Positions 27,498-46,506 are shown, counted from the stretch's first letter. The stretch: 47,142 bases of DNA from Verrucomicrobiales bacterium (GCA_028281705.1 JANQJH010000103.1:1-47142); one strand, 5' to 3'. Numbers and translations: made by a program. Notes: generated from the sequence alone by a model not told the origin.

Positions 27498-28414
27498 CTT
27501 GCGATCTCCCTTCCGACGGGCATGTCTTCGCCCATCACTTGCTGATAGAGTTCAGGCACGACATCCCAGGCGCTCTTGGCCACGAAGACGACCTGTTGGT
27601 CTCTCAGACTCACCTTCACCACAGGGTCGACCGACGGTCCCACAACGGCAAAGGATTCCGCCACATGGGCTTCGTCCACACCCCATCGCATCGTTTTGAG
27701 GATGAGTCGAAAGTTGATGTCGGCCAGGCTGTAACCGATGAAGAGGATGGGCCACGACATGAGCCGAAACTCGAAGAGACTCGGGATCACTTTGTAGGGG
27801 CTCGGGTCCCGCATCCTCAAGATGAATTGGATGTAATCATCTTCGGTGATGACCAGGGAATCGGCCCGGTCGACATCGCCGTGCATTTTGAAGAGGCGCG
27901 GGCTATCCGGCTCGGGCTCTTCCATACTCGGATTGCTCTTGAACGTGGCATCCGGGTTGTAGATGTCTGCGATCTCCCGCTTTCCGTGAAACCCGAGTGC
28001 CAATTCGTAGAGCTGATCGTAGTTGGTGGTGACCGCCAGGCGGAAGGGAAGCCGTGCCAGGGCTTGGACAACGGCTGAGGGTTGTCTACGTTGGCCACGC
28101 CCCCCGGTCTTCACTTCCCGGGCAATGAGATCGACGAGATTCTTTCGGCCATGCGAGATCTCGTAAAGCGCTGCCATGCGTTGGAGATTCCCTATCTGGC
28201 TTTCGAGTCCGCGAAGGTCGGCGTGTGATCTGAGGAGATCTCCCTCTTCGGCAATCGTCTTTGAAAGTTGGTCACCGAGGGGAGGTTGAACTTCAGGCGG
28301 GTAACTTGAAGCGAACACGGAATCCTGTTCTGGAGGGTAATTCACACCCGCTCCGGTGAAGAGGATGCACTCCCCATCAGCTACGGACTCAATGAGACTG
28401 TGAGGTAAACCCAT
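27494..28414 (-). CDS. SIR2-like domain protein (putative NADase effector)
   Basis: GECILFTGAGVNYP, LAVTTNYDQLYELAL, RLFKMHGDVDRADSLVITEDDY, PILFIGYSLADINFRLIL: SIR2-like family motifs with GAG, TTN-D and HG; overlaps nSTAND gene by 4 nt. Confidence 0.9.
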   Translation of the reverse strand: MGLPHSLIESVADGECILFTGAGVNYPPEQDSVFASSYPPEVQPPLGDQLSKTIAEEGDLLRSHADLRGLESQIGNLQRMAALYEISHGRKNLVDLIAREVKTGGRGQRRQPSAVVQALARLPFRLAVTTNYDQLYELALGFHGKREIADIYNPDATFKSNPSMEEPEPDSPRLFKMHGDVDRADSLVITEDDYIQFILRMRDPSPYKVIPSLFEFRLMSWPILFIGYSLADINFRLILKTMRWGVDEAHVAESFAVVGPSVDPVVKVSLRDQQVVFVAKSAWDVVPELYQQVMGEDMPVGREIAR

Positions 28415-29589: not shown

Positions 29590-30600
29590 CTACTCGCTTG
29601 AACGCAGGCGTTTGAGGAAGCGCGTCAGCTTGGAGGCGTTGGGATCTTCGGGGAGCTTCCCGGCGAGAAAGTGTTCGAACACGGTGTCGGCACTCGTCTG
29701 TGTCTGCTCGCTGATGGAGTAGGGCGCCTCATGGGTGAAGGCAATGGCCTGGCGTCCGGCGCGGAGAGAAAAGAAACTCTCCCGGCGCGGCGGGCCGACG
29801 ATGATGTCGATGAGTTCTCCTGTGGGCGATCGGACTAACAAGATCAAGGTATCGCGGCCGAGAGTGGTTTGGAGAAGGGTGCGCCAGAGTTCGAAGATGT
29901 GATCCTCCTCGAGACCCGCAATGATCGGCAGGCGAAGCTGGAAGCGAGCCTCCTGTTTGCCGTAGGCAGTGGCGGCAAAGATGAAGTGGAGGATGCGGTA
30001 GAATCCCTGCCGCTCGGGACCCATCTCTTGGGCATCGAGAAAGGCGCGGCGCTCTTTCTCGGTGGTCACGGTTGCCGGTTCAGGGGGAGAACCCTCCGCA
30101 GCGGTTTCTTCGTTCAGCTTGCGGAACCGGCCTTGGATGCCTTGGACGAGGCGCTTGGCGATATCGCGGCTCTGGGTGGCTTGGAGCCGCGGAATGGAGG
30201 CTTTGATTTCGGTGAGCACGGGGCGGGTGATGGCGCCAAGGCGATGGCCGCGCGCGTGGCAGACGGCGACGAGAGGGTAGTGGCCGCGTCCCCGAGCGTC
30301 CCTGGAGGCAGCTAGGGCTCCGATCACGGCGTCTTCTCGTCGAGACCAGACAAACTCGTGATCGAAGGGAAGGGCGTTTCCCTCTTTCTCCAATGGAGTC
30401 CAGCTTCCCCGGCTGATGACCGCACCGATGCCCTGAACGTAAAGGGACTGTTTGACTGTGAGGATTGATTGAGTCTCGGCACCGAGATGTTCCATGTGAT
30501 CGTCCCAGGCGGAATGCTTCCCGAAATGCGCGATCTCCAGCGATGGTTCAGCGCCTCTGGGCGATGCGTCACGCAAAAGGAATTCGGGTCCGGTGGGCAT
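29590..30600 (-). CDS. TagF-like / T6SS-associated hypothetical protein
   Basis: EIAHFGKHSAWDDHMEHLGAET... resembles the FGK-x-x-x-x-D-F start of TagF domains; adjacent to the tssM-like gene. Confidence 0.45.
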   Translation of the reverse strand: MPTGPEFLLRDASPRGAEPSLEIAHFGKHSAWDDHMEHLGAETQSILTVKQSLYVQGIGAVISRGSWTPLEKEGNALPFDHEFVWSRREDAVIGALAASRDARGRGHYPLVAVCHARGHRLGAITRPVLTEIKASIPRLQATQSRDIAKRLVQGIQGRFRKLNEETAAEGSPPEPATVTTEKERRAFLDAQEMGPERQGFYRILHFIFAATAYGKQEARFQLRLPIIAGLEEDHIFELWRTLLQTTLGRDTLILLVRSPTGELIDIIVGPPRRESFFSLRAGRQAIAFTHEAPYSISEQTQTSADTVFEHFLAGKLPEDPNASKLTRFLKRLRSSE

Positions 30601-30633
30601 CTGAGAGGATTGGAACGTGGAGTGGCCTGAGTG

Positions 30634-33600
30634 CTAGTTATTGAAGGCAGCGTCTAACTCTTCTTTGGTGATCCAGTGATCGGGATCATAGATCCCTTCG
30701 AGCTGGACCGTGAGAAAGAGGCTGCTTCGGGGGAACTCCGGTGTGGGTATCTCAATCACAGGATCCTGGCCCCGGCGCGTGCGGGAGAATCACAGAGCTC
30801 TGAGAACGCCCCAAAGACCCTTGTAGTCGCCGCACTGACCGTTGGCCGGACCGGTGGCGCCGCGGGGCCATCCGGCATAATCGACGAAGATGCCGGAATC
30901 AAAGGAGGCCAGGTTGCCATCGAATTGGCTGCCGGCGCGCCCGTTGAGATCACGGTAAATGGTGCAATCCTCGATATTGAACCCGGTCTTGACGGTGGTC
31001 GGCGGGGCCGGTGTGGGGTCGTCTTCTGCACCCGGAAGCCTGGGACGCTCGCTGGGGACTTCCTGCGTGCCGGGTCGCGAAGCCGAGAGGCTCAATTGTA
31101 CTTTGGCGATTTTACCGTTTTGATAGAGTAGCTTGACGACATCGGTGATCTTCCTCGCCTTCTGGACTGCATTCTTGACTTCGCCCTTGAGCGGGACGGA
31201 GGCATCCAGCCCCTCGAGAGGATCCAAATCAAGCGATACCTTAGACCACTCTTTGGCCATGGTGATGAAGGCCTTGGGTTCGAGGAACGGGGTGCGTCGT
31301 GGCGCGATGACGAGGGGATAGCGTCCGCTTTGGGCGGCGATGCGGCCGACATCGAGATACCATTGGTCAATCAGATTCGCCGTGGTTCTCGCCAGCCCGA
31401 TCTCCGCCAGGTTGCGGCAGAGGCGTTTGAACTCGCTGCTCATGGGGCCTTCGTAAGCGGGAGCCGGCCTGGCCTTACCTTCGAGGTTCTGCATCTCCTG
31501 AGCCAGATTCCCGACGAGGTCGCCCGCCTCGATGGCTGATGGCTGCAACATGGACTCGTAGGCATCGTAGCGAAAGGCATAGAGTGGTTTGCCCGATTCG
31601 TGCATGCTGAGGTAGGGATCTTCGACGATGGCACCCTCAGCTTCTGCTCCTTGACCTTGGTCGGCCGGCGCCGCAGAGGTGGAGAGGCCAAGGTTGGGCG
31701 GTTGGTTGCGGCCTCCCAATTCGCGAAGGACGCGCCGGAACTCGGCATCCTCGGGCACGAGCATGCAGACGCGTTTCATCTCTTCCCAGGTTTCGCCGTA
31801 GGCCTGGATGTCGACCTTGTTAGAACCGGTCAGTTGATCCAGAGTCTGCTTCACGTTGCCCAGTTCGCTGATTAGCTCGAGGGCGTTGCCTGGCAGCTCA
31901 CTGTTCTTCAGCAAGTTGTCTTCGATGGCTTTGAAGGCATCCTTGGCCGCGGTCTTTTCGGCCTCGCGTTCGTCATCGCTGTCTCTCTTGAGGCGAAATC
32001 GTTTGAAGCCCAAGCTGAAGGCGGAGGCGTAGTCTTCGCGCCACATCCAGTTCTGATCTGTCCAGTGGAAGCCGCGCATGAAGTCACCCAGGGGAGCGAG
32101 ATCAGCGTTAGAGATGTTGGCCTCGCCGATGACGAACTGCATCAGGGGCCAAACGAAATCGTCGATGGGATCTTGAAAGACCTCGGCGGCTTTCCCAAAG
32201 GTGGCAGCCTTGACCTTCATCATGGTGACGAGGGCCCGCATTTCGTAGCGATTGGGAATGGCGTCCGGGGGCGTTTGCAGGAGCTGTTGCCTCGTGGCAT
32301 CGAGCAATGGTTTGATGACGCTTCCGGCGATGACGATCTGGCGGCTTTGGGGCCGGCGGTGTTTGAGGTCGTGTTCGTAGAACACTTCCAGTGGCCTGAA
32401 GAAGGTGAAGCCGGGCAGGGGATCCAAGGGCGCCGAACCCTGGATGAGCTGACTTTGCTGGACGCGGCTGTAGGACCAGTTCCCCTCCGCATCTTGTTCG
32501 ACGATGGGGGCGTAGGTCCCGTTGATGAACTTCTCGTGAGCGTATTGGATCCGCGGCGACTCAATCTTGATTTGCTTGATGATCCGGGCATGAAAGAGCA
32601 AGCCGAGGCCCAGGAAGAGGACGAGAAGCGAGGCGGTGACGACGTAGTAGAAGACGAGCCGTTTGCGGAGGAGAGATCCGAGATCTCGGATGCGGGTGAC
32701 GAGTCCCTTCTCGCGGAAGATCTTTCCGAGGAAGAGTTCGCGGAGGTACATCGACTTTTCCCGTGCCCAGATGCCGCCCTCTGGAAGTTGACTCGGGGCC
32801 ATGTTCAAGGCCTGGGCCAGCTGCTGATCGAGGGCAGCGCCTTCGCGCTTGGAACTCGTAAAGTAGACGCCGCGAAAGAAGGGCGGCATCTCGGACCACT
32901 CACTATCACTGAAGACGATCTCGAGATAGCGGGAGAGGCGTTTCACCACTTGGGAAACGGCGTCGGGGAACGTGAAGAGGGCGTCGACTTCGTTGATGCG
33001 CCGGCCGTCGCGTTCCTTGGGAACGGGGTCTTGCAGAATGGTCCATCGGCGGTAGCGGAGATGGGTCACCATCTGCTCTAGTTCGGCACAAACTTCGGAC
33101 GGTTTGATGGGCGTGTCGAGGTCGTGAGGGTTCGACCAGCCAAAGCACTGCCTCTCATAGTTCGCATTGACCGGAGCGTCGCAAAACTCCTTGAATCCCG
33201 TGATCAAGTCAGCCTTGGTGATCATGAGATAGATGCTGAAACGCAGTCCCAGCGTCTTCTGGATCATGGAGAGTTGCCGCGCTAGATTGAGGCCCTTGGC
33301 ATCGGCGCTCTCCACGTCGTCGAGAAGGAGGCTCTCGACCGAGATGGCGATGATCATCCCGTTGATGGGGCAGTCGGGCCGATGCATCTTGAGCATCTTG
33401 AGAAACTCTTCGAAGCGAGCTGCGCTATCGGATTCTGTTAGGAGAGCCCCGGCGGTGTCTAACAAGATGGCGCGGTCGGTGAACCACCAGTCCATGCTGT
33501 AGGTGCCGCCGACGCCCTGCTGTTTCTCTTGCAGTCCTTCGGGGAAATTGATCGAACTGTTGCGGATGGCCTCTGTTTTTCCGGCGCCAGGCTCGCCCAC

Positions 33601-34062
33601 CATGACATACCAGGGAAAATCGTAAACGCTCTTGCCATACTGGCGGAAGACGTCGACCCCGCGCTGGAACTTCTGACGCATCTCATCGACCCGGGCCGCT
33701 TCGGCGGGATCGGAAACGGGTCCGGCTCCCTGGGCGGCCTCGGCTTTGAGGTTTTCTTCGAAGGCGGCGGCGCGCCGGCGATCCCGGCGTTTCTTGATCA
33801 TGCGGAAGAGGAAGAAGAGGCCTCCGAGAGCAAGGAGAACGACCGCGCCGACGATCAAGGCGGTGGTCCCCAGATGCCGTCCACGGACGGCATAGGTCCC
33901 CAGGTAAAAGAGTCCCGCGGCCAATCCCATGGTGGGGATGATCATGATGAGGTACATCTTGGGCGGGATGGCCTGCAACATGGTCTGCTTCCCCGCTGAC
34001 TTCACAGCCATCCCCGGCAGGCTCGTGGAACCGGGAATTCGTTTTGGAAGCTTCTTCTTCAT
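30634..34062 (-). CDS. tssM: TssM/IcmF-like inner-membrane ATPase; in-frame TGA at 30790-30792, coding continues to TAG at 30634-30636
   Basis: Two N-terminal TM segments, YDFPWYVMVGEPGAGKTEAIRNSSINFP (Walker A), DWWFTDRAILLDTAGALL, C-terminal TM LVFYYVVTASLLVLFLGLGLLF. After GLWGVLRAL-TGA the same frame reads FSRTRRGQDPVIEIPTPEFPRSSLFLTVQLEGIYDPDHWITKEELDAAFNN-TAG. Confidence 0.88.
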
Positions 34063-34086
34063 GGTGTCGGGCGTTGGGGGATCGGT

Positions 34087-34821
34087 CTAGCCGGTTTGGT
34101 TAGGCGCCGGTTGGTCGCTTTGATAGGATTCCAGTATGTATCGCATCTCCTTGGGGACCTGTTTGCGGATGCTCTTATAAAGGAGAAAATAACAGCAGAA
34201 ACCGGAGAGGAGGAGGCAGCAAAGGGCGCTGAGAATGGCGAAGGGCCTCGCTTTGGGGGGATTGACCAGATCCCGTTCGTCGAGGCCTTGATAGGCTTGG
34301 GGGGTGAGATAGGGTTCGTCGTTGGGCGGGATCAAATGCTGGACCTTGTCGCGAAGGGAGGAGGCATAGTGGCGGAGTTCATCCGGCTTGTTGAAATAAC
34401 GTCCTTCGAATCCCAGGCCGATGCAGGTGTAAAAAACGACCAAGCGATCGGCCAAAGCTTCCGAGGGTGATGTTCGAGCCTCCTCCAGGGCGGGATCGAG
34501 GTAGTAGTCAAAGAAGGCTTCGTCACCGGCCAGGCCCTCGGTATCGGCGCCGAGCTTGTTCCTGCTCCATTGCTCGGCAAAGGCCAGTTGGCTCTTGGGC
34601 TCCATGATGAGGTAATCGATGAAGTAACGGATGGGATTGTCCAGGTTCCGCACTTGCTCGCGGAGGTAGGGGTCCTGTTCCGCGTAAGCGTTGATTTGCT
34701 TGATGAGATCGACGATGGCGCCGCGGACGTTGTCATACCCCAGGTGAGCCCCGTTTCGCGCCAGGCGATTCAACTGGCACATGTAGAGGAAGATGGGCTC
34801 GTAGAGTTGGTAAGCCGTCAT
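34087..34821 (-). CDS. tssL: TssL/DotU-like protein with C-terminal TM anchor
   Basis: LYEPIFLYMCQLNRLAR...NPIRYFIDYLIMEPKSQLAFAEQW...FFDYYLDPALEEARTSPSEALADRLVVFYTCIGLGFEGRYFNKPDELRHYASSLRDKV + TM AILSALCCLLLSGFCCYFLLY. Confidence 0.88.
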   Translation of the reverse strand: MTAYQLYEPIFLYMCQLNRLARNGAHLGYDNVRGAIVDLIKQINAYAEQDPYLREQVRNLDNPIRYFIDYLIMEPKSQLAFAEQWSRNKLGADTEGLAGDEAFFDYYLDPALEEARTSPSEALADRLVVFYTCIGLGFEGRYFNKPDELRHYASSLRDKVQHLIPPNDEPYLTPQAYQGLDERDLVNPPKARPFAILSALCCLLLSGFCCYFLLYKSIRKQVPKEMRYILESYQSDQPAPNQTG

Positions 34822-34836
34822 GACTTCGATGATTGC

Positions 34837-36216
34837 CTATTCGGTCTGCGCGGGGGCGAGGATGTAGAGAGCGATCTTGTGCTCATCCGATCTCCCGGAT
34901 TTGAGTTCGATGATGGCCACCGGTTCTTGCAACAGTTGTTCCCAGGCAGAGCTGTTCTGTGCCGTATCGATGCGATAGTAGTAGCGTTGGGCCTTGGCCG
35001 GCAATTGTACCGGCGGGTGGCGGTCCTCTTTGAGCACGGCTCCCCGAAGGGCGCGGCGGGCGAAGCTCATGGGAACGAGTTTAAAGAGATCAGAGTTCTC
35101 GATCAAATTCGTGAGCGCGCTGGGATCGCTTTCGGATTCGACGGCGAGGAAGTAGCCCGTGGCCCCTTCGAAATCTTCTGAGCGGATCTCCGCTTGATAG
35201 AACTGCTCGTCGACCGGTTCGAACTCCACGATGCGGTATTGGGGAGCCAGCGTACCTTCGAGATACTGTCGAATCTTGCGGTTGAGGGTGTCGAAGGCGG
35301 GGTAGGGATCATCGTGATCGTAGTCCGGGATCTCCCAGTTGTTGTCCTGGGGGTACATGGACACGAGTTCGGCGAAGAGATCCCGCCACTCCAGGTAGGC
35401 GGCAAAGGGCGTGAGATTGTCGACCCGAGAAAGCGCGTTCAGGCGGGCGTCGAAGCGCGAGAGGATGCGGAGCCGCATGAACTGTTCAAAACGGTGTCCT
35501 CCCTGGATGGTCTTGATATCGAAATTGCTGCTCCCCAGGTGCTCCTCCAACTCCGTCCGCACGGCGCCGACTTGACTCGCGAGATCCGCGAAGAGGTTGT
35601 TCAGGGTGGCCGAGCCTTTGAGCCAGAGGGTCGGTGGAATGTAGTAGGGATCGAGTCGCGGGCGTCCCGCGCCTTCCGCGGTGGTTTCTCGTCGGATCTT
35701 GAGCAGCGGGATGACTTCGAGATCGCTCTGATCTTCGTCCTGGAAGAGGATCATTGCATTGTACTTGCGGATCTGGACAACTTGATCGTTGTCGCCGGTG
35801 TTTTCGTCGGCGACCTCGGAATCGTCTGCGTGATAGAGTAACTTGATCCGCTGGGCGACCTCGTTGGGGTTCTCTAGCAGATTGCCGCGCTTGGCGGTCC
35901 ACACAGGAAGCGCGAGGTAGGCGGTGAAGCCCTCCGCATGGGTCTGGAAGGCCTGGCGAAAGTTGATCGCGGGGAGGGCGGCGGTTTCGGGAAAATCGAT
36001 GATGGCACCACTGGGCATGACAGCCTGGAGCCGTGTGAAACGGATTTGGAAATCGTCCAGATCGTCGACCGCGAGGGAAGCGGAGAGCACTCCGTAGGGA
36101 TGGGACACCGCAAAGGTTCGCTCTTGTGCCAGGGCGAGCCCGGTTTCACGTTGGAGCAATTGAAAGTGTTGCGGCTGAAGGAACTGACCTTCGTGCCAAT
36201 GAATGTGTTTTGGCAT
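34837..36216 (-). CDS. tssK: TssK-like baseplate protein
   Basis: MPKHIHWHEGQFLQPQHFQLLQRETGLALAQERTFAVSHPYGVLSASLAVDDLDDFQIRFTRLQAVMPSGAIIDFP: characteristic TssK N-terminus. Confidence 0.9.
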   Translation of the reverse strand: MPKHIHWHEGQFLQPQHFQLLQRETGLALAQERTFAVSHPYGVLSASLAVDDLDDFQIRFTRLQAVMPSGAIIDFPETAALPAINFRQAFQTHAEGFTAYLALPVWTAKRGNLLENPNEVAQRIKLLYHADDSEVADENTGDNDQVVQIRKYNAMILFQDEDQSDLEVIPLLKIRRETTAEGAGRPRLDPYYIPPTLWLKGSATLNNLFADLASQVGAVRTELEEHLGSSNFDIKTIQGGHRFEQFMRLRILSRFDARLNALSRVDNLTPFAAYLEWRDLFAELVSMYPQDNNWEIPDYDHDDPYPAFDTLNRKIRQYLEGTLAPQYRIVEFEPVDEQFYQAEIRSEDFEGATGYFLAVESESDPSALTNLIENSDLFKLVPMSFARRALRGAVLKEDRHPPVQLPAKAQRYYYRIDTAQNSSAWEQLLQEPVAIIELKSGRSDEHKIALYILAPAQTE

Positions 36217-36302
36217 GGTGGTGTGGAAGCGGCGATCGTTAAGAGATCATCGGAATTGGGTTTGAAAGGGTCAAGCTCACAGGGGAGAGAAGGAGCGGGC
36301 GA

Positions 36303-37289
36303 TCAGGCGTTCTCTTGTTCACAGCGGAACCATTCTTCGGCGATTTCGGCAATGCGGTTGCGCAGCCACTGCTCAAGATAGGACGGGTCGATTTGATCAA
36401 AGAGCTTGACGTACTCATCCCAGCATCGCGAGCCCTCGCCTTGAAAGGCGATGAATCCGCCGCCGCTCTTCTGGGTATCTTTGACCAAGGTTTCGGGCGA
36501 GAGATAGTGAAAGAGTTCGTCACAAAAGTTCTTGCCTCCTCGGCCGAGCCCGTTGGTGATGGATTTGGCCAGCCACGCAGTGCCTTCGATGGCCTCGCGG
36601 CACACATCGGGATCGGCCTCCCCGTCGGCGGCGACGTACTGGCCGATGGCATCGCGGAGCGATTTGCGGCCGGGGCGGAGCTGCGAGGTCGGAGCGATCT
36701 CTCCCCAGGCGCGCCACACCAGATCCTCCAGACCGGTGAAGGATTCGAACATCCAGCGGAGCACGCGCAAGAGCCGATGGAGATTGATGGGCTGTTCGAG
36801 GTCGAGGTTCAGCGAAAGTTTGAGGGATTCGAGGATGAGCTGGATACTGGCGACATCGGCGTCGTCGAGTTCAATTTGGTTTTCAAGCTGTGCCAGAGGA
36901 GAGGCGGCTTGCGGCGGCGGCTTTTGCACGAGGCCGACGTCTTCGAGATAAGCCATGAAGGATTCGCGTTGCTCCGCCGGGAGATTGGCGCAGCAGATGA
37001 CGAAGTCGTTGAGGATTTTGTCAGGGGTGTCGCCGTCCTCTGCCTTCTCGATGGGGGCCGGATCTTGGGGAAGGGGCATTCCCGCGGGAAACCGCCTCGT
37101 CAGTTCCCGGAGATACTCGCCCCGGCGGGTTGCGGGAACGTCCTTGAGCAAGAGATCAAATTCTTGAACGAGAGCCGTGCGGCGTTGATCGGCTGGCCAG
37201 TCGCGGCAACTTGCCTGGACGAGCTTGAGCCGGGCTCCTGCTTGATACGACCACCGCCGCGGTTCGGGCAACTCACTCATGGATTCCAT
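36303..37289 (-). CDS. T6SS-associated hypothetical protein (possible relative of the Fha C-terminal domain)
   Basis: Co-directional upstream of tssK-like; C-terminal IAFQGEGSRCWDEYVKLFDQIDPSYLEQWLRNRIAEIAEEWFR loosely resembles the C-terminal helical domain of T6SS FHA proteins. Confidence 0.55.
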   Translation of the reverse strand: MESMSELPEPRRWSYQAGARLKLVQASCRDWPADQRRTALVQEFDLLLKDVPATRRGEYLRELTRRFPAGMPLPQDPAPIEKAEDGDTPDKILNDFVICCANLPAEQRESFMAYLEDVGLVQKPPPQAASPLAQLENQIELDDADVASIQLILESLKLSLNLDLEQPINLHRLLRVLRWMFESFTGLEDLVWRAWGEIAPTSQLRPGRKSLRDAIGQYVAADGEADPDVCREAIEGTAWLAKSITNGLGRGGKNFCDELFHYLSPETLVKDTQKSGGGFIAFQGEGSRCWDEYVKLFDQIDPSYLEQWLRNRIAEIAEEWFRCEQENA

Positions 37290-37364
37290 TCTTGCATTCC
37301 TGCCTCGCGGCGGGGAAAGTCTACACGATCCACTTCGGCGATCCAGTCCATTCATCCACGAGGC

Positions 37365-38534
37365 ATGCGCCAGCAGAGTTGTCAGATTTTCCCTCTATTG
37401 ATCGCCGTCATGGTCACTGCGATGGCCGGTGTGGTGATGGCGCAGAACGAACGTGGCTGGTTGCGGCGGGATGTGGCTGTTCTAGTCGACGTCTCGGCCT
37501 CGGTGATTCAGCAGGACTGGAAGAATGACGACAAGGAGATCGTGAGAAAGGTGATCATGGGGCTTCGGCGCGACAGTGATCTCGGGAGTGATTGGGTGAT
37601 CAACACCGAACTCGGTGAGGAGGTGGTGGCTCCGTATTATCGCGAGGGGCTGGCAGATGGCAGCATGCCCTTGTTGGAATCAGGTAACTCGCTGATTATC
37701 ATGAGATTCGGGGATCTAAAGACGATTCGTGAAAGCGTCATGGAATCCCGGCCGATCACGAATGTCGAGGCGGATACCAGGGCTTATTTTGAAGACCCCA
37801 ACCGGGGGTATCCGAGGTACTCGAGCATTCGGCAGAACAATGAGTTCACCGATCAGAAAACCAACATCACGCTGGCCAAGGCGAAGGTGCATCGGCTCAT
37901 GGCTCGGGAGGAGGGCTATTATCTGATTGTGGTCTCCGACGAAGATCCTGACGAGGAGCTGGAGAAGCTCACGGCTGACGAACTCACCATGATTCGGGAG
38001 TGGGAAGGCCGTACCGGAGTGACGAACATCGTTACGTTGAGGCGCCGGACGTCGCAGCTCAAGATTAGCTTGCGGGCCGTCGGCTTTGACCCCGATCCGA
38101 ATGTGCAGATCAAGCGCGCTCAACGGTACACCCCGCCGGAACCCAAGCTTGCCATCGAATTTCTCGGGGCCCTGGGGGAGTCAACGGAAACGTTTCCCCA
38201 CCGGCCCCTGACGGATCCGCCCTACCTGGCCTGGCAGGTGAACGAGGACCGGGAAGCCCCGCGTGAGTTCATGGTCAAGTTGGAACCGATCGAGGGTCAG
38301 AACACACCCCCTGCCATGGTGGCCAAGGCCTCTTTTGTCGTCTATGATCGGGCGGAGTTGGACGGGAAATACCGCGTCAAAGTGGAGTCCGTGGCCTCGG
38401 GCGTGGCACCGCCGCGTGACGCCTACATTGAGATTCGTCGGCGATGGGACTTCCTCCCTTATCTCGCGCTGGTCACGGGCATTCTTTCGGTGACAGTCTT
38501 TATCTATACATGGTGGACGTTGCGACAGAGCTGA
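37365..38534 (+). CDS. Membrane protein with signal peptide, VWA-like domain and C-terminal TM
   Basis: MRQQSCQIFPLLIAVMVTAMAGVVMAQ; RRDVAVLVDVSASVIQQDW (DxSxS MIDAS-like); TM FLPYLALVTGILSVTVFIYTWW. Start set to ATG 37365; the preceding ORF portion is antisense to the neighbouring gene. Confidence 0.65.
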   Translation: MRQQSCQIFPLLIAVMVTAMAGVVMAQNERGWLRRDVAVLVDVSASVIQQDWKNDDKEIVRKVIMGLRRDSDLGSDWVINTELGEEVVAPYYREGLADGSMPLLESGNSLIIMRFGDLKTIRESVMESRPITNVEADTRAYFEDPNRGYPRYSSIRQNNEFTDQKTNITLAKAKVHRLMAREEGYYLIVVSDEDPDEELEKLTADELTMIREWEGRTGVTNIVTLRRRTSQLKISLRAVGFDPDPNVQIKRAQRYTPPEPKLAIEFLGALGESTETFPHRPLTDPPYLAWQVNEDREAPREFMVKLEPIEGQNTPPAMVAKASFVVYDRAELDGKYRVKVESVASGVAPPRDAYIEIRRRWDFLPYLALVTGILSVTVFIYTWWTLRQS

Positions 38535-38577
38535 CCCGGCCGTCACTGTTCGGACCTTCGACGAGGATGATGGTTTC

Positions 38578-40293
38578 ATGATCGGAAAGGGCCCTCTCTC
38601 GTCGACCGTCCTTCCCGGCTGGGAAGTTTGCCCGCTCTGGGGGCATCAGGGTGAGGAAGAGACCGCGTCATCGCCTCTTCGTCTGGGTCCGTTGGTGCGT
38701 GCCGAATCCGCCCGCGGCGTTGCCGGCCAGTCCGACTTCGTCGTCCTGCGGACGCTGGCCCAGGCGACGGTCTTTCTCGGCGCGCTCGTCGATCAGGCGG
38801 AGGTGGTCCACGAATGGTTGGAGATCTGGGTCGAGGACGAGGCGAACAAGCTGGAAGAGGGGGGCGGCCATGCGGATCTTTGGGCGGATCAAGTGGCGGC
38901 GATGGCGGCGATCAGCGGGCACGATCTCATGGCCTCGGACTGGCCGTCGAGCACCGCGGCCTTGGAAGCCCTGGGATTCAACACGCATGGGGGTCGGGTG
39001 CAGGTGAGGAAGTACGCGGCCTTTGATCTCATCCGTTACTCCGAATTGATCTCGCGGGCGGCCGTGCGGGAGCCGGTGTTGGAAACGGAGTTACTGGCGA
39101 GCGTTTGTCAGGTGGCTTTGGGAGCGGAGGAGCACATTCGGTTTGGTGAAGGATTCTATCTTCTCTCACGCCGCGGAAGCGCGGGACTCTTTGGCGAGAG
39201 TCTCTTTCTCAAGCTGAACCTTCTGCATCAGATTCTAACGCTTTGTGAGGGGAGCACCGTAGCCCTGGGCCGGCCCTTGCTCAATCTGGCGTCGGCTGGA
39301 TTCGGCGTGGATTTCAAGAGCGGCTCCGGGATGCTTCCGGCGGCCTGGACGGCCAAGGTGGTTCTGCGAGACCCGGGGGCGCCAGTTTCCCGATTCTTGG
39401 AACTGGAGGAGGCGACTTATTTTGCCCTCGACGCTCCGGCGACCGATTCCATTTATCAGTCGCGCGCGGTCAAGCCGCCCGTGGAAGGATCAGGGACGGT
39501 GCGGATTCGCAAGGCGGAAGAACGCGGTGAGGATTTGGTCGTGGAAGGCACGCTGGCCAGTGCCGAGGCCTTGCCGGAGGACGGCTTGCTCGAGCTTGAC
39601 CTCGAACTGCCTTCCGGGCGGACAGAGATCAGGGCACGTCTGACTCCGGGAGGGGCGGTCGATGGGGAGCGCCGTTTTGTCGCCCTGGCACGAATGAGTC
39701 CGGAGGAACGTCTTCACTTGGCTGAGCCCAAGCGCCTGGCACCGTTCCCCAACGCGGCCTTCCGGCTGCGGCCGCCTCTATCGAGTGCCTGTGATCTCTA
39801 TTCCATGGCGGTCATGGGAATGGAGCTATTGTTAGTCGATGGGCAGCAGACCCTCAGTGTCGTCCTGGATGAGATGATTTCGTTAGGGGATTTTTTGCGG
39901 ACCGTGCCGGTGAGTGATGAAGTGCCTCTCATCATCGAGACCGCCGTGCGGGAGCAGGAATCGGGAAGCTGGGGCCGAACGTTGGGACCGCAGCGCTTGA
40001 TCCAGGATGTCGATGGGCGTCCGTTTGCCTACGAGGAAGCTCTTGGGTTCATCCCTTCGGAGATCTGGTGGCGGACGATTTATCTGCTCTTGAGGATGTT
40101 GACCAACGGCTGGCATTTCAATTTTTGCAAGCATCTCAACGACGCCCCGAGTTTGGCCCTGCACACGGTCTACCGGCAGCCGCGTTCTCAGTTGGAAATG
40201 ACGCTCGATCAGCTGCGGAGTTTGATTCTCCTGGATTGGGATCTGAATCAGGAGGTGAGGTCGCTCGTCGAGGGGAGGTTGGCTGCCCTCTAG
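38578..40293 (+). CDS. Uncharacterised 571-aa protein of the T6SS-like locus
   Basis: Long ORF between VWA-like and STAS-OmpA genes; ORF intact and co-directional. Confidence 0.7.
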   Translation: MIGKGPLSSTVLPGWEVCPLWGHQGEEETASSPLRLGPLVRAESARGVAGQSDFVVLRTLAQATVFLGALVDQAEVVHEWLEIWVEDEANKLEEGGGHADLWADQVAAMAAISGHDLMASDWPSSTAALEALGFNTHGGRVQVRKYAAFDLIRYSELISRAAVREPVLETELLASVCQVALGAEEHIRFGEGFYLLSRRGSAGLFGESLFLKLNLLHQILTLCEGSTVALGRPLLNLASAGFGVDFKSGSGMLPAAWTAKVVLRDPGAPVSRFLELEEATYFALDAPATDSIYQSRAVKPPVEGSGTVRIRKAEERGEDLVVEGTLASAEALPEDGLLELDLELPSGRTEIRARLTPGGAVDGERRFVALARMSPEERLHLAEPKRLAPFPNAAFRLRPPLSSACDLYSMAVMGMELLLVDGQQTLSVVLDEMISLGDFLRTVPVSDEVPLIIETAVREQESGSWGRTLGPQRLIQDVDGRPFAYEEALGFIPSEIWWRTIYLLLRMLTNGWHFNFCKHLNDAPSLALHTVYRQPRSQLEMTLDQLRSLILLDWDLNQEVRSLVEGRLAAL

Positions 40294-40587
40294 GCGGAGG
40301 GTATCCAAAGAAGGTTCAGTTCTCCTACTCGATGGAATCGCATGATCGGCCCCTTAGGTATCACGCTGCCCACGTGATTCACCTTTCATCGCCGATCGAG
40401 AGGTCCTCGCCCGACTCTTTCGAGGACGAGTAAGAGAACGAGTTGTTTTACGTGAACGAGCGGATTGCCTCGGTCCCGTAGGGCTGCGGGCTGCCTGCGA
40501 GGCAGAGTAGGCTTGATTGAATGCGGGAATCCTTTAAAGCTTGGTGCGGCCTGCCATGCACGGAATCACTATTCATTTCAGGGAAAG

Positions 40588-42615
40588 ATGCTCAATATCG
40601 ATTTAGAGACCACGGGAGGCGCCATTTTGGCGCGGCTTTCGGGTGAGTTGGATCGCTCTGCTCGGGAACCACTTCTCAAAGCGGTGCGGACGGAGGCGGA
40701 GGCCAGTGGGGGCAAGGTGGTGCTCGACTGCGCCAATCTCAGCGCGCTGGATAGCGAGGGTGTCAGGGCGCTGCTGGCCTTGCAGACCTGGTTGAGGATC
40801 AAGGACAGCGAGATGGCAATTGCCGCCCTGCCCGCCCGGTTGGAAGAGACGATCAAGAGTGACCCCGGAGTGGACCAGTTTCTCACGCGGCATCCCTCGG
40901 TGGATGAGGCCTTGCAGGGTCTCGGATTGCCACCTCAGGGGGGAGCGGGATCTGGTGCTGCACCACCTGCTGCCGCGTTTCCACCTTCTTCGTCCACGCC
41001 GCCACCGGCGAGGCCGGCGACTCCTCCTCCTGTGAGTGCTGGCCCACCGGCGACTCCGCCTCCGGCGGCCGCTTCGCCTCCGGCAGCGGATGTGGGGGGC
41101 TGGGGATCGCCTCCAGCGGCCGTGCCGGAATCGAGCCCGCCGACGCCATCGGATCCTCCGGCATCTCGACCCGCCTCCGATCCACCGGCGGGTGAAGCGC
41201 GTGGCGGTGGGGCTTGGGAAACGCCCATCGCGACACCGGAGCCCGTGGCTGGTGGCGGCGCCAAGCCAGAACCGAAACCGGAAGAGCCCGCGATTTCTGC
41301 TCCCGCGGGAGCTTGGGGGGCGCCGGTGGCTGAACCCGAATCTCCAGCCCAGCCCGCGGCGGCGAATAAGGAGCCGACTGCCTGGGCCAAAGGGCCTCCG
41401 CCGAGAGACGAGAAGCCTCCAGGGAAGAAGAGCAAGAAAGGGATCATCATTGGCGCGCTCGTCGGCCTGATTGTCGTCGGAGTGATCGCTTCGTTTTTCA
41501 TCAAACCGACCAAGGCGCTGCCGCCGACGATTGGACCGGAGATCAGTCACGACCTCGTGGGCAAGGTGGGCGAAGTGCCCACCCCCAAAGAGGTCGTCTT
41601 TCGCCTAACCAATGTGGATCTCGTGCAGGATATCACCACGATACCTGGCGAGGATGCCTTGGAAAAATGGATCGAGATGGAAGTCTCGGGGACGAACGAA
41701 AACTGTCAGGTGACGTTCACATTTTCAACGGTTGATGCCATCCCCGAACACCAGAGCATCATCCTCGAGGCTCAGGGCCTGGACAAGACCCCGGTCAATG
41801 GGTTCATCAACTTTGCGATTCAGGAACCGAACGCGAAGTTAGTGATCCTGGACGAGCCGTTGAAGGAGGGCGAGGTAGGCAATGTCTACAGTGACTGGAT
41901 TGCTTTGAACGACCGCAGCCAGGGGGTCTTTCGTCTCGACGATGGAAGTCAGGTCCCCAAGGGCCTCAACCTCTTGGAGAGCGGCAAGCTGACGGGCACG
42001 CCGGAAGAGGCAGGTTCCTTTGAGTTCACCGTGAGGGCGACACGCGGTGAGGACGAGCCGGCGAGCAAGGTTTTCACCCTGACCATCGCTGAGCCGCCAA
42101 CGGAAGAGGAAGAGTCCGTGGATGCGATGAAGCTTCTGCAAGACATCAAGAAGCGGGTGGGCAATATTGATATGCGCCATTTGCGAGACGAGGCCTTGAA
42201 CGAGTACCAACGCTTTGCCGGCTATCTCTTCCACCTCAACGAGAAGAATGCCGTTGAATACGTCAAGCCCGTCGTCACGGTGACCTTTGCCCTGGGGAAA
42301 GTGGATGTGGAGAAAGCGGAAGTGGAGAGTCAGCTCAACGCCATGGATCTCGACGACTGGGTGACGAACCAGGACGTGCGCTTTGTCGTCGCCGGCTTTG
42401 CCGACAAGATCGGTGGTGATGAAGCGAATCGGGTGATCATCAGGGAACGGGCCAAAAGTCTCAAGGCGGTGGTGGAAGACTGGTTGATCAAGGAGTGGAA
42501 CATTTCACCGGCCTTGGCGCGCAAGAGAGTTGTCGTGATTCCCAACAAGCCTTCCGACGATTTTGAAACGGCTCGAGCTGCCGAGTGTTGGCTCTTCAAA
42601 CCGCCGAACCCTTGA
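40588..42615 (+). CDS. STAS domain + Pro/Ala-rich linker + TM + putative Ig-like domain + OmpA-like C-terminus
   Basis: MLNIDLETTGGAILARLSGELDRSAREPLLKAV...VVLDCANLSALDSEGVRALLALQ (STAS); TM GIIIGALVGLIVVGVIASFFI; DGSQVPKGLNLLESGKLTGTPEEAGSFEFTVRATRG (Ig-like); FVVAGFADKIGGDEANRVIIRERAKSLKAVVEDWLI (OmpA-like). Confidence 0.8.
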   Translation: MLNIDLETTGGAILARLSGELDRSAREPLLKAVRTEAEASGGKVVLDCANLSALDSEGVRALLALQTWLRIKDSEMAIAALPARLEETIKSDPGVDQFLTRHPSVDEALQGLGLPPQGGAGSGAAPPAAAFPPSSSTPPPARPATPPPVSAGPPATPPPAAASPPAADVGGWGSPPAAVPESSPPTPSDPPASRPASDPPAGEARGGGAWETPIATPEPVAGGGAKPEPKPEEPAISAPAGAWGAPVAEPESPAQPAAANKEPTAWAKGPPPRDEKPPGKKSKKGIIIGALVGLIVVGVIASFFIKPTKALPPTIGPEISHDLVGKVGEVPTPKEVVFRLTNVDLVQDITTIPGEDALEKWIEMEVSGTNENCQVTFTFSTVDAIPEHQSIILEAQGLDKTPVNGFINFAIQEPNAKLVILDEPLKEGEVGNVYSDWIALNDRSQGVFRLDDGSQVPKGLNLLESGKLTGTPEEAGSFEFTVRATRGEDEPASKVFTLTIAEPPTEEEESVDAMKLLQDIKKRVGNIDMRHLRDEALNEYQRFAGYLFHLNEKNAVEYVKPVVTVTFALGKVDVEKAEVESQLNAMDLDDWVTNQDVRFVVAGFADKIGGDEANRVIIRERAKSLKAVVEDWLIKEWNISPALARKRVVVIPNKPSDDFETARAAECWLFKPPNP

Positions 42616-42681
42616 TGATCGCGCCGGCGCCCTGCTCAGTATCGGGAAGCATTGTTTGATTGACAGGTATCAGGTATCACG

Positions 42682-45153
42682 ATGTCGGCGCAGCCAAAGA
42701 TCGTCTTTCTTCACGATCAAGCGACCTATCCGCTTGTCCGTGGCATCCCCTTGACCTTGGGGCGCAGCCACGAGGGTCCCGTCGAGCACGCGCAGCACGT
42801 TCGGTTGGCCCACAGGGAGATGGCGCCGCATCATTGTCAGGTTTCCTGGGACGGCATCGCCGTGATATTTGCCCCGTTGCAGGCGGAGTTTCCCTGTTAT
42901 ATCAATGGTCAGGTGGTGACCGAGGCCGTTCCCGTTGACCACGGGGATATCCTGACATTTGGGCCCTTCAACATCGAGTTGGATGCGCCCGAGCACGAAC
43001 TCTTTCCCGCCGAGGCGGAGCCCATGTTGCCGCCTTCATTGGTGGGGACCATCCCGTTGGAGGATGGGCTCACCATTGGCTGCGGGCCCTCCTGCAGTGT
43101 GCCCCTGGAGAGCGAGGAGTTTGCCGACTATCCGGACGGCGCCTTTCAGGTTTTGGTCGAGGAGGCTCCCGAGGGATTTCGTGTCGGCGATCGCGGCACC
43201 GAACCGTCGTGGTTGAACGGGCAGCTTTTTTCGGACGAGGACCTCATCATTGGTGATTACCTGCAGATCGGGTCTCAGAATCTGCGCTTTGATGGCCGCT
43301 CCTTCGTCGGTGTGTCGCGCACCCTGGGGGCGGAGCTCCATGCCACCGGCATCTACAAGGCTTACGGAGAGACGAAAGTGCTCCAGGACGCCTCCTTCGA
43401 TGCGCCCTCGGGGCAATTCATCGGCATCCTGGGGCCCAGTGGATCCGGCAAGACGACCTTGCTCAAAGTCATCAGCGGCATTGAGAATCTCCAAGGGGGG
43501 CAGGTGCTGGTCAATGGCGTCGATCTCTTCGAGAATTTGAGCTACTGCCGGTCGCTCATGGGTTACGTGCCCCAGGACGACATCGTGCACGAGGAACTCA
43601 CCGTGTGGGAGGCGATGGCTTACAGCGCCTATCTGCGGCTTCCCGATTGGACCAGTGACCGGGAGATCCACAAGCTCATTGTCAAGATTCTGGAGAGCCT
43701 GGGTCTCTATCGGCCGGAGAAGAATATCGACCACACGCGCAAGCGTCTCACCGAGTTGTCAGGGGGACAGCGGAAACGTGTCAGTGTGGCGGTGGAGCTT
43801 CTCAACCGGCCGCAGATTCTTTTCCTCGACGAGCCGACCTCGGGGCTCGATCCCGGCATGGAGTTTGAGCTCATGAGCACGCTGCGCAGCCTGACGCAGT
43901 CCGGCTGTACCGTGATTTGTACGACGCACGTTCTGGAGAACGTTTTTCTCATGGATAGCGTTGCCGTCATCTACCACGGGTGCCGAGTCTTTCAGGGAGA
44001 TTCCACCCGCGCCCGATCCCATTTTGATGTCGACCGGCTGAGCGAGGTTTACACCACGTTGGACGAAGAGGGGCAAAAATGGGTGCAATCCGCCGCCTTG
44101 GCCCTCGCTGATTCCCCGATGGGTGAGTCGGCCGAAGCGAATGCTGCGCTGGAGGAGCGCGAGGCGGCGAAGAAAAGTACGGTCCGGGCGATCAAGCATC
44201 TCCTGTCGCGCCAGATAGCGATTCTGTTAGCGGACCCGAAGAACCTGATGCTCCTCTTGGGGCAGCCCTTCATCATCGGCTTGCTCATCACGCTGGCCGC
44301 GGTGGATGAGGGAGCGGCCATCACAAAGTTGTTTCTCGCCCACGTGGCCACCTTCTGGTTTGGATGCAGCAATGCCGCCCAGGAAATTGTGAGGGAGCGG
44401 GCGATCTTCTCCCGGGAGAAGATGGTGGGTCTGGGAGTGAACGCCTATTTGTTAGGCAAAGTGGTAGCGGCCGGGGGCATCTCGTGTCTCCAGGCGCTCC
44501 TGCTCTTTGGCGTGCTGCGCCTCAATGTCCATGAGATCACGCGAAGCATCAAGGCGCCTCCCTCCGCGGACGGAGACACGGGCACGGGCACGGCCGAGGC
44601 GGCGTCCGGTCTGGCGCTCTACTGGGATGGGCTGCCGGGCTCCGTGCCGTGGCAGTTGATCGCCATGTTGCTCACGGCACTGGCGTCGAGCCTGATCGGT
44701 CTAGCCCTTTCCTCGTGGGCCAAGCGGCCGGCGCAGGCCGCCCTCGCCGTGCCTCTCATCATCATTCCGCAGATCCTCTTGGCCGGCTACGTGTTTCCCC
44801 TTCAAGATTGGCGGCCGGAGGACGAAGGCGCCCTCAGCGCCGGGGTGAAGCGGATGGTGGGCGCTTTCTCGGCGATCACCCCCAGCGGGGCGGCGCAGAA
44901 GATCGTCGATACCAGTTTCTACTGGCAGATGGAGTCACTCAATTCCGGGACCGCCTTTGCCACGCCGTTCGAGAACCTGCGGATCAAGGATTGGAAAAAG
45001 GACATTCCTCCGATCGAACCGGGGGCCGGGACGAGCCGGAAAATCGAGCCCGCCTACAAGGATGTGCGGCCCGCTTCGTTTGGGATGGCGATCTTGTTCC
45101 TTTGGTGCGTGGTGAGTTATGGCTTTGCCTGGACGCAGCTGCGGAAGACGTGA
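42682..45153 (+). CDS. FHA-domain ABC transporter: tandem FHA-like domains + ABC ATPase + ABC-2 permease in one polypeptide
   Basis: LTLGRSHEG...LAHREMAPHHCQV...FPCYINGQVVTEAVPVDHGDILTFG (FHA); second FHA-like region 43030-43300; GILGPSGSGKTTLLKVISG, LSGGQRKRVSVAVELLNRPQILFLDEPTSGLDP; multi-TM C-terminus. Confidence 0.9.
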   Translation: MSAQPKIVFLHDQATYPLVRGIPLTLGRSHEGPVEHAQHVRLAHREMAPHHCQVSWDGIAVIFAPLQAEFPCYINGQVVTEAVPVDHGDILTFGPFNIELDAPEHELFPAEAEPMLPPSLVGTIPLEDGLTIGCGPSCSVPLESEEFADYPDGAFQVLVEEAPEGFRVGDRGTEPSWLNGQLFSDEDLIIGDYLQIGSQNLRFDGRSFVGVSRTLGAELHATGIYKAYGETKVLQDASFDAPSGQFIGILGPSGSGKTTLLKVISGIENLQGGQVLVNGVDLFENLSYCRSLMGYVPQDDIVHEELTVWEAMAYSAYLRLPDWTSDREIHKLIVKILESLGLYRPEKNIDHTRKRLTELSGGQRKRVSVAVELLNRPQILFLDEPTSGLDPGMEFELMSTLRSLTQSGCTVICTTHVLENVFLMDSVAVIYHGCRVFQGDSTRARSHFDVDRLSEVYTTLDEEGQKWVQSAALALADSPMGESAEANAALEEREAAKKSTVRAIKHLLSRQIAILLADPKNLMLLLGQPFIIGLLITLAAVDEGAAITKLFLAHVATFWFGCSNAAQEIVRERAIFSREKMVGLGVNAYLLGKVVAAGGISCLQALLLFGVLRLNVHEITRSIKAPPSADGDTGTGTAEAASGLALYWDGLPGSVPWQLIAMLLTALASSLIGLALSSWAKRPAQAALAVPLIIIPQILLAGYVFPLQDWRPEDEGALSAGVKRMVGAFSAITPSGAAQKIVDTSFYWQMESLNSGTAFATPFENLRIKDWKKDIPPIEPGAGTSRKIEPAYKDVRPASFGMAILFLWCVVSYGFAWTQLRKT

Positions 45154-45200
45154 GTTCTGATTGCCTTCTCTAACGCTCCACTCAAGTGGACAGTGGAGCC

Positions 45201-45338
45201 TCACGCAAAGCCGCAAAGTCGCAAAGGTTTCGTTCGTTTGCGTGAAATTGGACTGGTGGCCCGTTGTTATTGGGCCCCAGCGATTTCGTAAAGTCGTAAA
45301 GAGGTTGGAACTTTGCGGCTTGGCGACTTGGCGAGAGG
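45201..45338. repeat. CGCAAAG-type interspersed/inverted repeat cluster
   Basis: TCACGCAAAGCCGCAAAGTCGCAAAGG (45201-45227), TTTGCGTGA (45237-45245, inverted), TCGTAAAGTCGTAAAG and CTTTGCGGCTTGGCGACTTGGCGAGAG (45311-45337). Confidence 0.65.
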
Positions 45339-45423
45339 CCCCTTCGACGCTGCTGAAATGCCGTCCCCTTCTTCCTCAATAGTCGACGGGTTCTCTGCCT
45401 GTGGGTTTCCTATGGCTCGCGGA

Positions 45424-45841
45424 ATTTACCTTGTCCCATTCAGGTTGCCTCTTGAGAATAAAATGCCTCAACAAATCGCTCAAAGGAAACTCGCCACTCC
45501 GAAATCTCGTGTCCATCGTCCGACTTTGTATCCCGCGGTCCAATCAATCCCAACAGGCTGCCGGACAATATCGATGACTCATTGCCCTGACAAAACGCGA
45601 TTTAATTCTGAACGAAGATGTTGTTTCCTTCGCGATACAAGGAGTAAACCGCAATAAACTCGGCCACATGAGGATCTCTCATGGCTGAGAGAAGGTGCCC
45701 GTTAGGGTGACCATCAATCATTGATCTGATCGTGCTGCCCCATTGTCGCTCATAGTCAGCAATGCCCCAGTAATCAATCGGGGCGGCGAAACGCTCCGAA
45801 CTCGTCAATCTCGATCCGGCACCATTGGCAGTGTTCTCCAT
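45424..45841 (-). pseudogene. Immunity-like protein gene interrupted by one in-frame TAA
   Basis: MENTANGAGSRLTSSERFAAPIDYWGIADYERQWG...VYSLYREGNNIFVQN-TAA(45602-45604)-IAFCQGNESSILSGSLLGLIGPRDTKSDDGHEISEWRVSFERFVEAFYSQEAT-TGA in the same frame. Confidence 0.6.
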
Positions 45842-46110
45842 AGATCAGCGTTGGTGTGTCTGGAAGCGCGGATATTCTAAATCCCATCATCTGGCAATAC
45901 GATCAAGATTCGCGTCAAATTACCAAGCGGCGTTCTTTTTGATCAAGCATCTTCCCGGGAGCATAGTATATGTTAGTCTAGTCTAAACCCGAATTGGAAA
46001 ATCTATTTCCTTTCAGGATGTGAATATATTCTATCAAATTCCTAGATTTTCCATGTGTATTTGATTGCATTTGGGTAGAGTTCTAGTGGTATCGCCACCA
46101 ATCAGGCGCG

Positions 46111-46506
46111 CTACTGCGCAATCCAACGTTTCGTCTTCACGGCTTTTACGAGTGTACTTACGGAAATCGGTTTCAATCCATCAGGCTTTCGCGCCTCTCG
46201 ACCAAGTATTCGCAGGATTAATAGGAGCGGCAGCGCCAATATGGTTCCGCCGGGATAGCCTTCTCCGCCAAAATGCAGGCTGAGATCAAGCTCATCGAGA
46301 GCAACCGAAAAGCTCCTTCCAAATTCTACGAAGAATTCTTCAGCATCTTCTCCGTCGATACCTACATCTTGTAGTAGCGTTGTGTCCATACTCACACGCT
46401 CCTTTGGATACTTTGTTACTCTTTCAATAAAGTCGGCTACTGCTCTAAAGTCCGAATCACACAAATCATTCATTTCTGTCCATATATTCATCAACACAAT
46501 CTCCAA
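46111..46506 (-). CDS. DUF1493-like (acyl-carrier-protein-like) protein, putative immunity protein
   Basis: VSMDTTLLQDVGIDGEDAEEFFVEFGRSFSVALDELDLSLHFGGEGY; overlaps the 3' end of the Rhs gene. Start could be ATG 46491. Confidence 0.65.
   Translation of the reverse strand: MEIVLMNIWTEMNDLCDSDFRAVADFIERVTKYPKERVSMDTTLLQDVGIDGEDAEEFFVEFGRSFSVALDELDLSLHFGGEGYPGGTILALPLLLILRILGREARKPDGLKPISVSTLVKAVKTKRWIAQ

What the first reader, a model, noticed from the sequence alone, without database searches (positions are those of the whole stretch)
29590..45153. Non-canonical T6SS-derived locus: TssK/TssL/TssM with STAS-OmpA, VWA-like protein and a tandem-FHA ABC exporter
Seen: two divergent gene sets from a ~75-bp intergenic region. 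Minus strand: Fha-C-like protein, TssK-like, TssL/DotU-like, TssM/IcmF-like, TagF-like. Plus strand: VWA-like membrane protein, 571-aa orphan, STAS-OmpA fusion, FHA-FHA-ABC-ABC2 exporter. Established: canonical T6SS needs TssB/C sheath, Hcp, VgrG, TssE/F/G, ClpV. None of these is in the window, and the operons are bounded by an unrelated isomerase and by a repeat/Rhs region. Inference: either the rest of the T6SS is elsewhere, or the membrane complex plus TssK has been recruited to a phospho-signal-gated (FHA) ABC export or envelope machine. This is my leading candidate for an undescribed system.
Basis: partly seen in the sequence, partly recalled or inferred. Interest (0 to 1): 0.85.

Follow-up and report, generated by a model that had tools for sequence, protein, structure and literature searches.

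The report
Membrane half of a split T6SS
The locus is the wall-anchoring half of an otherwise standard bacterial spear gun (type VI secretion system) whose firing half lies elsewhere in the same genome, with a set of unusual phospho-signalling neighbours that look like an undescribed regulatory variant rather than a new machine.

Summary
The genes are real: TagF-like, TssM, TssL, TssK and an FHA-less TagH-like gene on one strand; VWA-like, a 571-aa protein, STAS-OmpA and FHA-FHA-ABC-ABC2 on the other. The main inference (a sheath-less machine) fails. The same genome holds TssA/B/C/E/F/G, Hcp, ClpV and VgrG on contig C634, which has no TssK/L/M; the window carries the genome's only TssK and TssM. 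In 188 genomes of the class, TssK and TssC hit exactly the same 10; 48 of 50 PVC genomes with a related tssK have a sheath gene. Relative G139 carries the two halves as one cluster that includes STAS-OmpA, VWA and FHA-ABC homologues. So this is a T6SS split between TagF and TssA. What remains unusual is the accessory set. The 571-aa orphan is a T6SS-linked family with a pseudokinase-like predicted fold. OmpA + FHA-ABC is a two-gene cassette that also occurs without T6SS. I propose that these genes form a phospho-signalling, envelope-sensing module analogous to TagQRST-PpkA-Fha. That function is inferred, not shown.

The parts
29590..30600 (-). TagF-like T6SS regulator (336 aa); last gene of the minus operon
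   Evidence: PF09867 E=0.006; homologues directly after tssM in G139 (5e-21) and in 43 of 80 named tssK loci
30790..34062 (-). TssM/IcmF inner-membrane ATPase-like component (1090 aa)
   Evidence: PF14331 E=7e-50; only copy in the genome
34087..34821 (-). TssL/DotU (244 aa), C-terminal TM, no peptidoglycan-binding domain
   Evidence: PF09850 E=2.6e-18; one TM at 191-218
34837..36216 (-). TssK baseplate adaptor (459 aa)
   Evidence: PF05936 E=3e-63; TIGR03353 over its cutoff; only copy in the genome
36303..37355 (-). TagH-like protein with T6SS_FHA_C but no FHA domain (start probably 37289)
   Evidence: PF20232 E=0.002; 9 of 27 family members hit T6SS_FHA_C and none hits FHA
37365..38534 (+). 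VWA-like periplasmic protein: signal peptide, DxSxS motif, C-terminal TM
   Evidence: homologue next to clpV in G139; none in the 178 genomes without TssK
38578..40293 (+). 571-aa T6SS-linked protein with a pseudokinase-like predicted fold
40588..42615 (+). STAS - Pro-rich linker - TM - Ig-like - OmpA-like protein (start ATG 40588; the long ORF opens at 40465)
   Evidence: homologue directly upstream of FHAC-tssK in G139
42682..45153 (+). FHA-FHA(degenerate)-ABC-ABC2 half-transporter, Rv1747-like architecture

Best explanation
This is the membrane-complex half (TagH-like, TssK, TssL, TssM, TagF) of a contractile T6SS of a verrucomicrobial bacterium. The tail half (TssA/B/C, Hcp, TagJ/ImpE, TssE/F/G, ClpV, VgrG) lies at a second locus, contig C634. 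The ancestral cluster was broken between tagF and tssA. TssM/TssL span the inner membrane and TssK docks the baseplate made from C634 genes, as in known T6SSs (inferred from homology). The divergent plus-strand genes are accessory. The OmpA end of STAS-OmpA probably anchors the complex to the wall in place of TagL or a PG-binding TssL. The 571-aa pseudokinase-like protein, the VWA protein and the FHA-ABC transporter probably form a trans-envelope phospho-signalling module that licenses assembly, in the role of TagQRST-PpkA-Fha, with the FHA function moved from TagH onto the transporter. The split T6SS is shown by sequence; the accessory roles are inference. The confidence given is for the split T6SS; for the accessory signalling role it is about 0.4.
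For: Own genome: TssC E=5e-126 on C634 with TssB, Hcp, TssA/E/F/G, ImpE, ClpV and VgrG; the only TssK and TssM are in the window. TssK and TssC hit the same 10 of 188 class genomes (hypergeometric p=8e-17); 48 of 50 PVC tssK genomes have TssC over cutoff. TssK and TssC distances correlate (Mantel r=0.74, 0 of 2000 permutations as high). G139 has one contiguous run kinase..VgrG..STAS-OmpA-FHAC-TssK-L-M-TagF-TssA-B-C-Hcp-ImpE-E-F-G-ClpV-VWA-FHA-ABC. L175 has FHAC-K-L-M-TagF-OmpA-FHA-ABC-MT508-TssA-B-C-Hcp, and C634 has the same MT508/TssA junction. The 571-aa family lies in 21 of 28 FHAC-type tssK loci with enough upstream sequence, 0 of 12 others (p=9e-6), and inside complete clusters (G216, G217). 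Its model (pLDDT 79) matches mostly kinases, and the HRD and DFG aspartates are gone. FGE domains (TagR-like) and kinase-like fusions occur in sister loci. The TagQRST-PpkA-Fha module and PG anchoring by TagL are published (PMC12607579, PMC8253398).
Against: The halves are on different contigs with no shared ends, so the distance between them is unknown. No TssJ was found (PF12790), although PF12790 also misses the lipoproteins in tssJ position in sister loci. OmpA + FHA-ABC also occurs in T6SS-negative genomes, so that pair is not T6SS-dedicated. Kinase fold matches are weak (best E 0.013). VWA is by motif only. The T6SS is in 1 of 75 genomes of its family.
Confidence: 0.88

Rival explanations
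1. The plus-strand STAS-OmpA/FHA-ABC pair is an independent envelope ABC cassette, perhaps exporting lipid or polysaccharide under Ser/Thr-kinase control, that merely lies beside the T6SS genes and does not act on the T6SS.
For: OmpA + FHA-ABC is a two-gene unit in G059, G114, G165 and G170, which lack TssK and TssC. FHA-ABC presence is only weakly enriched in T6SS genomes (3 of 13, p=0.024). Rv1747, with the same architecture, affects envelope lipids without a T6SS (PMC5549992).
Against: The STAS fusion and VWA forms were found only in T6SS genomes. In L056/L175 the pair lies inside the T6SS cluster, between tagF and tssA. In G139 the two genes are at different ends of one T6SS cluster, so a shared operon alone does not explain the linkage.
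Confidence: 0.35
2. One reading: TssKLM was recruited to a sheath-less phospho-gated ABC export machine.
For: No sheath, tube or baseplate gene lies in the window; the locus is flanked by unrelated genes.
Against: A complete tail set lacking TssKLM is in the same genome, the window has the only TssK and TssM, and TssK and TssC co-occur strictly.
Confidence: 0.03
3. Binning artefact: C634 (or the window) comes from a second organism, so the two halves do not belong together.
For: The genome is a 678-contig assembly with 3% contamination, and no other of 75 genomes of the family has TssK.
Against: GC is nearly the same (window T6SS locus 0.60, C634 0.58-0.59). The halves are exactly complementary, without overlap, and the break point between tagF and tssA fits the relatives. 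The congeners also lack TssK, so its absence does not single out C634.
Confidence: 0.07

Closest known systems
Type VI secretion system (contractile, TssA-M)
   Same: All core genes except a recognisable TssJ are in the genome; order and operon content match contiguous clusters in relatives
   Different: Split over two contigs; TagH lacks its FHA domain; no PG-binding domain on TssL; unusual accessory genes
TagQRST-PpkA-PppA-Fha threonine-phosphorylation pathway of P. aeruginosa H1-T6SS (PMC12607579)
   Same: Kinase-like, FHA, ABC-transporter, FGE (TagR-like, in sister loci) and envelope-protein themes around the membrane-complex genes
   Different: The kinase-like protein lacks catalytic motifs; FHA is fused to an ABC2-type half-transporter; VWA and STAS-OmpA are separate proteins; no TagQ or PppA identified
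Rv1747 FHA-FHA-ABC-ABC2 transporter of M. tuberculosis (PMC5549992)
   Same: Same domain order: two FHA domains, then ATPase, then transmembrane domain
   Different: Linked here to T6SS genes and an OmpA-like partner; second FHA degenerate
TagL / specialised TssL peptidoglycan anchors (PMC8253398)
   Same: TM followed by a periplasmic OmpA-like domain, encoded with a TssL that lacks one
   Different: N-terminal cytoplasmic STAS domain and Ig-like linker

Membership tests
Type VI secretion system | Contractile sheath TssB/TssC and tube Hcp | tested here: met
   C634: VipA 1.4e-52, VipB 9e-126, Hcp 1e-43
Type VI secretion system | Baseplate TssE/F/G/K, spike VgrG, ATPase ClpV | tested here: met
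   TssE, F, G, ClpV and VgrG on C634; TssK in the window
Type VI secretion system | Membrane complex TssL, TssM | tested here: met
   TssM is the single copy
Type VI secretion system | Outer-membrane lipoprotein TssJ | tested here: inconclusive
   PF12790 has no match in the genome, but it also misses lipoproteins in tssJ position in sister loci
Type VI secretion system | Contraction-dependent effector secretion | not testable with these tools
   Needs experiment
TagQRST-PpkA-Fha pathway | Catalytic Ser/Thr kinase encoded with the T6SS | tested here: inconclusive
   Canonical kinase motifs in the G139 cluster; in G000 only degenerate kinase-like ORFs (571-aa protein, two on C634) were found near T6SS genes; the rest of the genome was not searched
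TagQRST-PpkA-Fha pathway | Fha protein with an FHA domain | tested here: not met
   The TagH-like protein has no FHA; 0 of 27 family members do. FHA is on the ABC protein
TagQRST-PpkA-Fha pathway | TagR FGE-like protein | tested here: not met
   No FGE hit among the window locus or C634 proteins scanned; FGE fusions are present in sister loci
Rv1747-like FHA-ABC transporter | FHA-FHA-ABC-ABC2 in one chain | tested here: met
   FHA 3.6e-9, ABC 3e-30, ABC2 4.5e-18; second FHA by alignment
TagL-type PG anchor | Periplasmic OmpA-like domain after a TM | tested here: inconclusive
   TM present; OmpA by hhalign E=5.5e-6, below the Pfam cutoff in the window protein
VWA domain protein | Significant match to a VWA profile | tested here: not met
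   No Pfam VWA hit at E<=10; conserved DxSxS motif only

The most novel reading that the evidence does not exclude
PVC bacteria use a previously undescribed trans-envelope phospho-sensor for T6SS firing: a pseudokinase (the 571-aa family) plus an OmpA-anchored FHA-ABC transporter and, here, VWA and STAS modules, replacing TagQRST and the FHA domain of TagH, and built from an envelope ABC cassette that also works without a T6SS.
Probability: 0.35. Interest if true: 0.6.

Novelty: new variant of a known kind. Interest (0 to 1): 0.42.

Why it matters
It removes a tempting but wrong claim of a sheath-less TssKLM machine. It maps T6SS clusters across Verrucomicrobiota and Phycisphaerae, where the held literature says little, and it points to a T6SS-linked pseudokinase-like family and a portable OmpA + FHA-ABC cassette that can be tested as firing sensors.

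Tried and rejected
Sheath-less recruitment: rejected. FHA-ABC as a T6SS-only part: rejected, since it also occurs in T6SS-negative genomes. Joining C634 to the window: no shared contig ends, so linkage stays open. A second VWA-like gene on C656 was checked and is not T6SS-linked. AlphaFold of STAS-OmpA without an alignment failed (pLDDT 39). PDB sequence search with the VWA pair gave nothing. VWA and STAS-OmpA searches used profiles built from G000 and G139 themselves, so the hypergeometric value for that pair is circular; only their absence from T6SS-negative genomes counts. For the 571-aa family the search used the window sequence alone, so its hits in two other T6SS genomes are independent. 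Laying the whole genome in the Python box was not available.

Full report
WHAT IS THERE. The window is contig C610 of an 8.3-Mb, 678-contig genome. Two divergent gene sets flank a short gap near 37.3 kb. Minus strand: a TagH-like protein with only the FHA_C domain, TssK, TssL, TssM and a TagF-like protein. Plus strand: a signal-peptide/TM protein with a VWA-like DxSxS motif, a 571-aa protein without any Pfam or NCBIfam hit, a STAS-TM-Ig-OmpA protein, and an FHA-FHA-ABC-ABC2 half-transporter. The VWA and OmpA labels rest on weaker evidence than it implied, and the VWA gene starts at 37365.

WHERE THE REST IS. A search of the same genome for the sheath found TssC at E=5e-126 on contig C634. That contig encodes TssA, TssB, TssC, Hcp, ImpE/TagJ, TssE, TssF, TssG, ClpV and VgrG, and no TssK, TssL or TssM. 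The only TssK and TssM of the genome are in the window. The two contigs are complementary with no overlap, and their GC contents are close. They share no end sequence, so the distance between them is unknown.

CO-OCCURRENCE. In 188 genomes of the class, TssK and TssC each hit 10 genomes, and they are the same 10 (hypergeometric p about 8e-17). Of 50 named PVC genomes drawn by a related tssK, 48 have TssC over the curated cutoff. TssK and TssC distances correlate across 39 genomes (Mantel r=0.74, 0 of 2000 permutations as high). A TssK recruited away from the sheath would not behave this way.

ANCESTRAL ORDER. In G139 (same order) one run reads kinase, Sel1 protein, VgrG, two unknowns, STAS-OmpA, FHAC, TssK, TssL, TssM, TagF, TssA, TssB, TssC, Hcp, ImpE, TssE, TssF, TssG, ClpV, VWA, and FHA-ABC on the other strand. 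In L175 the order is FHAC-TssK-TssL-TssM-TagF-OmpA-FHA-ABC-MT508-TssA-TssB-TssC-Hcp-ImpE. C634 shows the same MT508/TssA junction. The window locus therefore looks like a cluster broken between tagF and tssA. Within the family the T6SS is found in only 1 of 75 genomes, so it is patchy.

THE ACCESSORY GENES. (a) The 571-aa family lies in 21 of 28 FHAC-type tssK loci that have enough upstream sequence and in 0 of 12 other tssK loci. In the class search its only hits besides the window were in two other T6SS genomes, and it sits inside complete clusters in G216 and G217. Its AlphaFold model (22 sequences, pLDDT 79) matches mainly protein kinases in the PDB, although no match passes E 0.001 (best 0.013). 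The alignment keeps the kinase-like DLYxxxVL segment but has no HRD or DFG aspartate. 'Pseudokinase-like' is my reading. (b) Sister loci carry kinase-like/FGE fusions between the 571-aa gene and FHAC, and FGE domains on the long TagF fusions. These recall PpkA and TagR. (c) The FHA_C protein has no FHA domain in any of 27 members tested, so FHA function, if used, must come from another protein such as the ABC transporter. (d) OmpA + FHA-ABC is a two-gene cassette that also occurs in T6SS-negative Verrucomicrobiae G059, G114, G165 and G170. It is thus not a dedicated T6SS part, though it lies inside the T6SS clusters of L056 and L175. (e) The full STAS-OmpA fusion and the VWA protein were found only in G000 and G139 among 188 genomes; because the profiles were built from those two, only the absence elsewhere is informative.

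HOW IT PROBABLY WORKS. Shown by sequence: a T6SS with all core parts except a recognisable TssJ, encoded in two places. Inferred from known T6SSs: TssM/TssL form the trans-envelope base and TssK docks the C634-encoded baseplate and tail. Inferred here: STAS-OmpA supplies the wall anchor that TssL lacks, as TagL does elsewhere (PMC8253398), and the pseudokinase-like, VWA and FHA-ABC proteins relay an envelope or phospho-signal that licenses firing, in the role that TagQRST, PpkA and Fha play in Pseudomonas (PMC12607579). The main rival for this last step is that STAS-OmpA/FHA-ABC is an independent, Rv1747-like envelope transporter (PMC5549992) that is only a neighbour.

VERDICT. This is a new regulatory variant of a known system. 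Literature searches in the held library found no description of this accessory set, but that library is incomplete.

Noticed in passing
G000:C51 = L006:1807-3252; also L036:3878-5875 (G069): A fused TssB-TssC-like sheath protein (VipA + VipB in one 480-670 aa chain), separate from the main T6SS; additional, weaker PF05943 hits away from the main tssC recur in many of the 50 PVC genomes. Possible second sheath-like protein family.
   Followed up: partly
C634 = L005:7288-8814 (MT508) and L004:1724-3199 (MTS): Two methyltransferase genes beside the T6SS tail genes; homologues recur next to tssA in other PVC T6SS loci (L175; L097, L101, L111), suggesting T6SS-linked methyltransferases.
   Followed up: partly
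L059/L175, L056, L197-L200, L202: OmpA-like gene followed by an FHA-(FHA-)ABC-ABC2 gene as a conserved two-gene cassette, with and without T6SS in the genome.
   Followed up: yes
window 24432-28414: SIR2-like gene (PF13289) next to an nSTAND1-WD40 gene (PF20703), a pair resembling a defence or conflict system, just downstream of the T6SS locus.
   Followed up: partly
sister loci, e.g. L084:4624-8310 and L079:16433-20977: Very long kinase-like/FGE fusions and TagF fusions with FGE domains flanking tssK-L-M in Phycisphaerae.
   Followed up: partly
window 45160-47142: Gene-poor stretch with a short inverted repeat, followed by an Rhs-like C-terminal fragment running off the contig end.
   Followed up: partly
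G000 family (75 genomes): TssK present in only this one genome of the family, none of three congeners: patchy gain or loss.
   Followed up: no
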